64,000 bases of DNA, from contig NZ_CP084469.1 of NCBI RefSeq assembly GCF_020405205.1, forward strand, positions 2,976,001-3,040,000, given 5' to 3'. Of the stretch, positions 24,390 to 25,028 are shown in pieces. How positions within the stretch are numbered: position 1 is the first letter of the stretch; the number at the start of each line of letters is the position of its first letter. Both the position numbers and the translations under genes were made by a program. The notes beneath the pieces are model-generated. The model had not been told where the DNA came from. It searched no databases and was given only the letters and a program-made list of their open reading frames with translations. The stretch comes from Natrinema salinisoli. Its GTDB lineage: Archaea; Halobacteriota; Halobacteria; Halobacteriales; Natrialbaceae.

Positions 24390-24735
24390 GGTTCGACCGA
24401 GCGCGATCGAGTGGTCGGCTCTCCGCCGGGGTTCGAGGGTCCCGTGCACAACCGAACATCCGCAGGGGGAGGCAGTCGCCTCGAGCGGACCGGGAACCGA
24501 GACGGTGCGCCCGCAGTGCAGGCGAGGCAGTCGAGGAACGAGGCCTCGAGGCGATCGAACGCCGTTTCGATCGAGGAGGCCGTCTCTTGGTGCCATCGCC
24601 GGATCGCACCAGTCCGTTCAGTAGTTGCTGCTGGGGTCTGACCCCTTCCTCGTCGGTCATCGCGGCCTCCGGGAACGGCACGAGCGGTCCGTGCGCTCGA
24701 GTGCTGTCGGTCCTCGACGAGGTTAATTTCACTCA
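24390..24735 (-). pseudogene. Possible decayed gene
   Basis: On the minus strand an ATG at 24660 opens MTDEEGVRPQQQLLNGLVRS. A different frame continues with SSIETAFDRLEASFLDCL, which has the GC-rich third positions of coding DNA. Reading both would need one frameshift near 24590, after which similarity to ordinary protein fades. I do not recognise a family; this may be a relic or chance. Nothing else is supportable between 24311 and 24740. Confidence 0.2.
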
Positions 24736-24746
24736 TTTTCAGGACG

Positions 24747-24753
24747 TTTATAT
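24747..24753 (+). promoter_or_regulatory. TATA box of the candidate structured RNA
   Basis: TTTATAT is centred at 24750. The expected start site 26-28 bases downstream falls at about 24777, exactly the first base of a 12-pair hairpin, and no start codon with a usable frame follows. Confidence 0.55.
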
Positions 24754-24776
24754 CTCGGCGGGATGTACGTGTGCAT

Positions 24777-24890
24777 GCTTCCGAAACCCTCGGTAGGGGT
24801 TTGGAAGCAAGTCTCGGGTGTCCTGACCACCCGGGGCATTTAGGTGCGCTGCCCCCTGCGCTCGTGCCTTTGGAGACTTGCTCCAGTTGA
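24777..24890 (+). ncRNA. Candidate structured non-coding RNA
   Basis: Within about 105 bases four helices can form. A 12-bp hairpin with one bulged G spans 24777-24808. An enclosing helix pairs GCAAGTCTC (24807-24815) with GAGACTTGC (24873-24881), overlapping the first hairpin by two bases. Inside it are GGGTG/CACCC (24816-24832, loop TCCTGAC) and GGGGCA/TGCCCC (24833-24855, 11-base loop). The result is a multi-branch fold beginning at the predicted transcription start. No protein frame is supported and no gene follows closely downstream, so a riboswitch is less likely than an independent small RNA. It does not look like tRNA, 5S, SRP or RNase P RNA. The 3' end is not defined. Confidence 0.5.
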
Positions 24891-25028
24891 ACGTTATCAC
24901 AACCTTACTTATAACTAATGAAAACGTGACAGATAATTATCTGGTGCCAGTTCGAGTACCGATGGGATCTCTCGAGTGCGGAGTGAAAGCGGAAGATCGT
25001 TGGCATCGCGAGGCGGCGGTGCCGTCTC

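What the first reader, a model, noticed from the sequence alone, without database searches (positions are those of the whole stretch)
24747..24890. Candidate new structured RNA with its own promoter
A TATA box is followed, at the expected distance, by the first base of a 12-pair hairpin. Then a nine-pair closing helix encloses two more perfect hairpins. The total is about 105 bases of nearly complete pairing in a region with no protein gene, and the fold does not match tRNA, 5S, SRP, RNase P or typical C/D or H/ACA guides that I can recognise. Loops TCCTGAC and TTTAGGTGCGC are single-stranded candidates for target binding, and the shared GC at 24807-24808 could allow two alternative folds.
Basis: partly seen in the sequence, partly recalled or inferred. 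Interest (0 to 1): 0.72.

Follow-up and report, generated by a model that had tools for sequence, protein, structure and literature searches.

The report
Antisense RNA family controlling small-protein genes
The structured RNA is real, but it is one of about 26 related copies in this salt-loving archaeon, each predicted to lie face to face with the start of a small-protein gene on the other strand and to switch it off by base pairing, a layout resembling bacterial antisense-controlled toxin and plasmid genes and not found described in archaea in the searches made here.

Summary
The hairpins and TATA box are present as described (fold z -3.5), but the claim of no protein gene is wrong. The own genome holds 26 such RNAs, each beside a matching protein locus. 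The copies share one plan on two strands. Rightward: a TATA box, then a ~105-nt structured RNA. Leftward: a second promoter motif, the same ~105 nt as an mRNA leader, a start codon at the leader's end (ORF1, ~40 aa), and a stop overlapping the start of a small zinc-ribbon gene (ORF2) in nearly all intact copies. G-U pairs show that the strands keep different folds: the first hairpin belongs to the rightward RNA, the extended closing helix to the leftward leader. Covariation is strong (15 of 21 pairs, 0/500 shuffles). A 6-7 nt loop is hypervariable and enriched for the U-turn motif of kissing antisense RNAs. In other genera the leader precedes HalOD1, SWIM-like or other proteins. Best reading: an antisense RNA that blocks ORF1 and, by coupling, ORF2, as in hok/sok or CopA-tap-repA. 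The window copy's ORFs are broken, yet its RNA part is conserved. No transcript was seen; toxicity is untested.

The parts
24740..24757 (+). Rightward (antisense) promoter: TTTATA at 24747-24752 inside a palindrome (consensus CGGGACGTTTATATCCCG)
   Evidence: conserved in 47 aligned copies, with one palindrome pair changing on both sides in 6; third codon positions of the overlapping ORF1 codons are invariant while first and second positions vary
24775..24884 (+). Structured RNA of about 105-110 nt (predicted antisense RNA; 5' end predicted near 24775, 3' end not known)
   Evidence: G-U asymmetry; conserved against the Natrinema salsiterrestre orthologue
24777..24808 (+). Hairpin P1 (24777-24789 with 24796-24808), the fold kept by the plus-strand RNA
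24803..24815 (.). Shared middle segment GGAAGCAAGTCTC: pairs with 24777-24789 in the plus RNA and with 24873-24884 in the minus RNA
24816..24832 (.). Hairpin P3 GGGTG-TCCTGAC-CACCC; loop 24821-24827 is the hypervariable, putative kissing loop
   Evidence: Stem nearly invariant; loop 0.356 differences per site between orthologues; YUNR enrichment
24833..24855 (.). Hairpin P4 GGGGCA/TGCCCC with variable loop 24839-24849
24872..24884 (.). Right arm GGAGACTTGCTCC of the extended closing helix (P2ext); near the predicted 5' end of the leftward mRNA
24907..24920 (-). Leftward promoter motif ACTTATAACTAATG (minus strand CATTAGTTATAAGT), about 25 nt from the leader's 5' arm
   Evidence: Conserved at near-constant spacing; in G256 copies the equivalent minus-strand sequence reads CGAAAGTTTATAA, a BRE plus TATA by general knowledge. 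Direction is inferred
24777..24884 (-). 5' leader of the leftward mRNA
   Evidence: The invariant CATG (24774-24777) is the minus-strand start codon of ORF1 or another ORF in paralogues and in distant genera
24657..24776 (-). ORF1 remnant (about 39 codons in paralogues); here stopped after 15 codons by TGA 24731-24729, then TAA 24725-24723
   Evidence: same early stop in the orthologue L009
24420..24660 (-). ORF2 remnant (zinc-ribbon protein, CPxCG...PCGC), frameshifted; ATG at 24660-24658 would overlap the ORF1 stop
   Evidence: only profile positions 31-65 match in one frame

Best explanation
The rightward RNA is a cis-encoded antisense RNA. In an intact module a leftward promoter makes an mRNA whose ~105-nt leader folds by a long helix (P2ext) around hairpins P3 and P4 and ends at the start codon of a short leader ORF (ORF1). 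The ORF1 stop overlaps the start of ORF2, a small zinc-ribbon protein, so ORF2 depends on ORF1 translation. A promoter inside ORF1, facing right, makes the antisense RNA, complementary to the whole leader from the ORF1 start codon. It keeps another fold, with hairpin P1. The two RNAs first touch through complementary P3 loops of 6-7 nt (kissing), then zip up, hiding the ORF1 start and silencing ORF1 and ORF2. Loop divergence gives each copy its own address. Shown here: the anatomy, the conserved overlap, the strand-specific folds, covariation, loop variability and U-turn enrichment. Inferred: transcription of both strands, kissing, and repression. What ORF2 does is unknown; a type I toxin is one possibility. 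In the window copy both ORFs are dead and only the RNA part is kept.
For: One-to-one pairing of 26 RNAs with 26 protein loci in the genome. ORF1 starts at the leader's ATG in all copies examined; its stop overlaps the ORF2 start by 4 nt (26 copies), 8 (15), 11 (6) or more (2), in two frames and with TGA, TAG or TAA; 48 of 49 in a second set. G-U pairs: P1 41 plus against 5 minus; P2ext 5 plus against 44 minus; P1 20 to 6 in other families. Covariation 15 of 21 pairs, 127 cells against 34 in shuffles, 0/500; cognate pairing of P1 and P2ext across families exceeds mixed pairs, P below 0.0002. DNA-level constraint on the antisense TATA inside ORF1. YUNR U-turn in loops 46% against 28% shuffled (plus) and 40% against 13% (minus), repeated at 54/28 and 42/13. 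Two near-identical copies in G256 differ chiefly in the P3 loop. Same leader ahead of unrelated small proteins. RNA part conserved in the decayed window copy (3 changes in 145 nt against 8-11% around it).
Against: No transcript data for either strand. Outside the window's family the rightward TATA box is often not evident, so the antisense RNA may not be general. P2ext shows no strand bias outside the family (17 to 20) and a weaker one in the second set (36 to 54). Loops are not significantly more distinct within than between genomes (P = 0.12). G-U counts and loop counts come from related sequences and are not independent. Persistence of the RNA after loss of both ORFs in the window copy is not explained by pure cis control.
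Confidence: 0.6

Rival explanations
1. Type I toxin-antitoxin module: as in the best explanation, but ORF2 (or ORF1) is a toxin and the RNA is its antitoxin; the window copy is a solitary antitoxin kept after toxin decay. (A special case of the best explanation, so the two confidences overlap.)
For: Layout matches hok/sok as known from the literature (leader ORF coupled to a small protein, antisense promoter inside the leader ORF); many copies per chromosome; RNA kept where ORFs are dead.
Against: ORF2 is an acidic zinc-ribbon protein, not a hydrophobic peptide, and the same leader precedes HalOD1 and SWIM-like proteins with no toxin reputation. No PADLOC match for ORF1 or ORF2.
Confidence: 0.25
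2. Cis-regulatory leader (riboswitch-like or protein-responsive): only the leftward mRNA leader matters and switches between P2ext (start codon free) and P1 (start codon region paired); no antisense RNA.
For: Mutually exclusive helices sharing one segment, next to a start codon; same leader before different, mostly cysteine-rich proteins.
Against: G-U asymmetry says P1 is kept on the other strand (41 to 5; 74 to 7); the rightward TATA is conserved at third codon positions; conserved parts are stems and the hairpin loop is hypervariable, unlike a ligand pocket.
Confidence: 0.2
3. Stand-alone trans-acting small RNA that targets other mRNAs through its loops.
For: RNA conserved in the window copy although the cognate ORFs are dead; hypervariable loop.
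Against: Nearly every intact copy overlaps a coupled ORF pair; the loop differs even between orthologues, which is odd for a fixed trans target. Cognate pairing outside the leader was tested and not found, which does not bear on other targets.
Confidence: 0.1
4. Old short mobile or repeat element (MITE-like) whose hairpins are transposition ends.
For: Dispersed, multicopy, variable number between relatives.
Against: Copies keep promoters, ORFs, overlap and compensatory changes at 70-80% identity; orthologous positions are kept between species; no transposase-like part seen.
Confidence: 0.04

Closest known systems
hok/sok type I toxin-antitoxin (plasmid R1)
   Same: Leader ORF overlapping a small-protein ORF, antisense RNA from a promoter inside the leader ORF covering the leader ORF's start (from general knowledge of hok/sok).
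   Different: Haloarchaeal; ORF2 is a zinc-ribbon (or HalOD1, SWIM-like) protein; no sequence relation tested or known; each strand keeps its own fold.
CopA/CopT-tap-repA1 (IncFII) and RNAI-type copy-number control
   Same: Antisense RNA, hypervariable kissing loop of 6-7 nt with U-turn, coupling through a leader peptide (general knowledge).
   Different: No replication protein; copies sit dispersed on a chromosome.
SymE/SymR cis-antisense locus (PMC1891008)
   Same: Small protein with an antisense RNA encoded opposite it.
   Different: Bacterial; different protein; no leader ORF coupling known to me.
Antisense transcripts of Halobacterium salinarum (PMC6523106)
   Same: Haloarchaeal antisense RNAs, some on type II toxin-antitoxin genes.
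   Different: The passages read here do not describe this structured family, a leader ORF or a type I layout.

Membership tests
Type I toxin-antitoxin (hok/sok-like) | Antisense RNA gene overlapping the mRNA leader | tested here: met
   Conserved opposed promoter motifs and strand-specific folds; by sequence only, no transcript
Type I toxin-antitoxin (hok/sok-like) | Translational coupling of a leader ORF to the effector ORF | tested here: met
   Stop/start overlap in nearly all intact copies; coupling itself not measured
Type I toxin-antitoxin (hok/sok-like) | Small hydrophobic toxic protein | tested here: not met
   ORF2 is a soluble-looking acidic zinc-ribbon protein
Type I toxin-antitoxin (hok/sok-like) | Toxicity relieved by the RNA | not testable with these tools
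   Needs expression in a haloarchaeon
Antisense copy-number or translation control with kissing loops | U-turn (YUNR) in the recognition loop | tested here: met
   Enriched on both strands, in about half of loops
Antisense copy-number or translation control with kissing loops | Loops distinct among copies in one cell | tested here: inconclusive
   2 of 669 pairs within against 47 of 6234 between genomes, P = 0.12
Any Rfam family | Match at gathering score | tested here: not met
   None in the window; nothing relevant at relaxed threshold in three copies
tRNA or tmRNA | ARAGORN match | tested here: not met
Known small zinc-finger protein families (for ORF2) | Pfam or NCBIfam match above cut-off | tested here: not met

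The most novel reading that the evidence does not exclude
A widespread haloarchaeal class of antisense-RNA-controlled cassettes, the first hok/sok-like (type I) systems in archaea, in which one DNA segment encodes two opposed RNAs with different conserved folds, addressed by a rapidly changing 6-7 nt kissing loop, and in which the protein cargo is exchanged (zinc-ribbon, HalOD1, SWIM-like).
Probability: 0.3. Interest if true: 0.88.

Novelty: new variant of a known kind. Interest (0 to 1): 0.76.

Why it matters
Structured antisense RNAs acting through kissing loops and coupled leader peptides are a bacterial and plasmid theme; a 2025 paper still lists type I toxin-antitoxin systems only from a few bacterial phyla (PMC12390103). 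A family with about 26 copies per chromosome, found across Natrialbaceae genera and in other haloarchaeal families, would give archaea an equivalent, and it is directly testable in cultured Natrinema. The strand-specific G-U pattern is a clear sequence case of opposite strands being selected for different RNA folds, and the fast-changing loop raises the question of how new addresses arise.

Tried and rejected
Protein-coding reading of the plus strand: hairpin loop lengths vary freely and frames do not hold. Specific pairing of the RNA with its own mRNA outside the leader (Shine-Dalgarno region or coding part): no excess for cognate pairs (the first attempt, timed out). Loop inversion as the source of loop change: judged by eye only, few loops look inverted. 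Loops more distinct within a genome: not significant. Phage origin: no match to phage records. Structure of ORF2: low-confidence N-terminal half, confident core with short strands, no significant PDB match. RNAalifold on the plain MAFFT alignment missed P1 and P4 because loops shift the register. Mobility was not tested by empty sites.

Full report
Check of the observation. The sequence is as described: TTTATA at 24747-24752, hairpin P1 at 24777-24808, a nine-pair helix 24807-24815 with 24873-24881, and hairpins P3 and P4 between. The fold of 24775-24885 has z -3.50, 0 of 200 shuffles as low. There is no Rfam match and no tRNA. The region is not empty of protein genes, as shown below.

It is multicopy. 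A DNA search finds 25 copies in the own genome and copies in 40 of 100 relatives. A covariance model built from 15 copies finds 26 in the own genome, and a profile of the neighbouring small protein finds a protein locus beside each RNA, all on the main contig; two further protein-like remnants lie on contig C2. A survey of 293 genomes of the order gives RNA matches in 81, strong and multicopy in the same family, weaker elsewhere (match counts there are capped by the tool). Named carriers include Natrinema, Halopiger, Halovivax, Halostagnicola, Natronorubrum and Natrialba.

The other strand. Upstream of nearly every copy lies a minus-strand ORF for a zinc-ribbon protein, consensus CPxCGxPVxxVTxxGP...PCGC, in no Pfam or NCBIfam family. 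The invariant CATG at the left end of the RNA is the start codon of another minus-strand ORF, ORF1, of usually 33-51 codons. Its stop overlaps the ORF2 start by 4 nt in 26 copies, 8 nt in 15, 11 nt in 6 and more in 2; one copy misses by 1 nt and one has no near start. In a second set that partly shares genomes with the first, 48 of 49 overlap. The 8-nt overlaps are made by TGA, TAG or TAA in different copies, which argues for selection on the overlap. In distant genomes the same CATG starts other proteins: SWIM-like (PF04434, E 0.002, just under its cut-off), a CxxC protein in G256, and others; in Halostagnicola ORF2 is a HalOD1 protein.

Promoters. The right-hand motif ACTTATAWCTAYTG lies at near-constant distance from the leader. 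In G256 its minus strand reads CGAAAGTTTATAA, which by general knowledge of haloarchaeal promoters is a BRE with TATA facing left. The left-hand TATA sits inside ORF1; there, third codon positions are invariant (for example CCG 43 of 43, GGA 42 of 42) while first and second positions change, so the DNA element, not the peptide, is constrained. Both are sequence inferences.

Which strand is the RNA. A G-U pair on one strand is an A-C mismatch on the other. P1 has 41 G-U pairs read on the plus strand and 5 on the minus (plus more stable in 38 of 47). The extended closing helix has 5 on the plus and 44 on the minus (minus more stable in 43 of 47). Outside the family P1 gives 20 to 6, the closing helix 17 to 20. 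In the second set P1 gives 74 to 7, the closing helix 36 to 54. So the plus RNA keeps P1, and in the window's family the minus RNA keeps the closing helix; the two share segment 24803-24815. Pair counting on 81 aligned matches: 91.4% of cells paired, 15 of 21 pairs with changes on both sides, 127 such cells against 34 in shuffles, 0 of 500 (the alignment is fitted to the model, and three of the 81 rows are weak second hits in loci already counted). Cognate P1 and closing-helix partners across families pair better than mixed ones, P below 0.0002.

The loop. P3 is GGGTG-N6-7-CACCC with a nearly invariant stem. Between orthologues its loop differs at 0.356 per site, against 0.006 in the stem, 0.131 in P1, 0.048 at the antisense promoter and 0.284 in the right flank, where alignment is poor; many loops are either unchanged or wholly different. 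Two G256 copies 4 kb apart are near-identical outside it, with loops TTTGTGG and CGCCAA. The YUNR U-turn is in 46% of loops against 28% in shuffles (plus) and 40% against 13% (minus), repeated at 54/28 and 42/13. Loops are not significantly more distinct within genomes.

The window copy. Both ORFs are broken (ORF1 stops after 15 codons, ORF2 is frameshifted), already so in the orthologue L009. Yet 24740-24884 has 3 substitutions in 145 nt, all in loops or in a pair that becomes G-U on the plus strand, while neighbouring non-coding parts differ by 8-11%. So the RNA part may be kept without its ORFs, which the best explanation does not by itself predict; a solitary antitoxin-like or trans role is possible.

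Mechanism. The anatomy fits a cis-antisense RNA that blocks the ORF1 start and so the coupled ORF2, with first contact through the P3 loops. Cognate pairing outside the leader was tested and not found. Repression, kissing and transcription are inferred. Whether ORF2 is a toxin is open: it is not hydrophobic, and the cargo varies. Papers searched gave no description of this family; one 2025 paper states that type I toxin-antitoxin systems were known only in three bacterial phyla before its cyanobacterial case (PMC12390103). The library holds open-licence papers only, so absence there is weak evidence.

Noticed in passing
L111 and L112 (G256:C1:904983-906074 and 909290-910380): Two near-identical copies 4 kb apart whose P3 loops are completely different (TTTGTGG, CGCCAA); how the loop changes alone is unexplained.
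   Followed up: partly
G000:C2:208453-208593 and 268852-268998: Two zinc-ribbon ORF2-like remnants on a second contig of the own genome with no RNA match beside them.
   Followed up: no
L117, L118, L122, L124, L125 (family f17 genomes): The same leader abuts the start codon of SWIM-like proteins with a cysteine-rich tail (EDCDC...PCWPC); up to 18 RNA matches in one genome.
   Followed up: partly
L160, L218, L225 (Halostagnicola): Leader and ORF1 overlap by 4 nt a stand-alone HalOD1-type protein instead of the zinc-ribbon protein.
   Followed up: partly
window 24740-24757 and A1 columns 7-24: The palindrome around the rightward TATA changes symmetrically in some copies (CGGGACGTTTATATCCCG to CGAGACGTTTATGTCTCG); a dimeric regulator site or RNA hairpin is possible.
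   Followed up: partly
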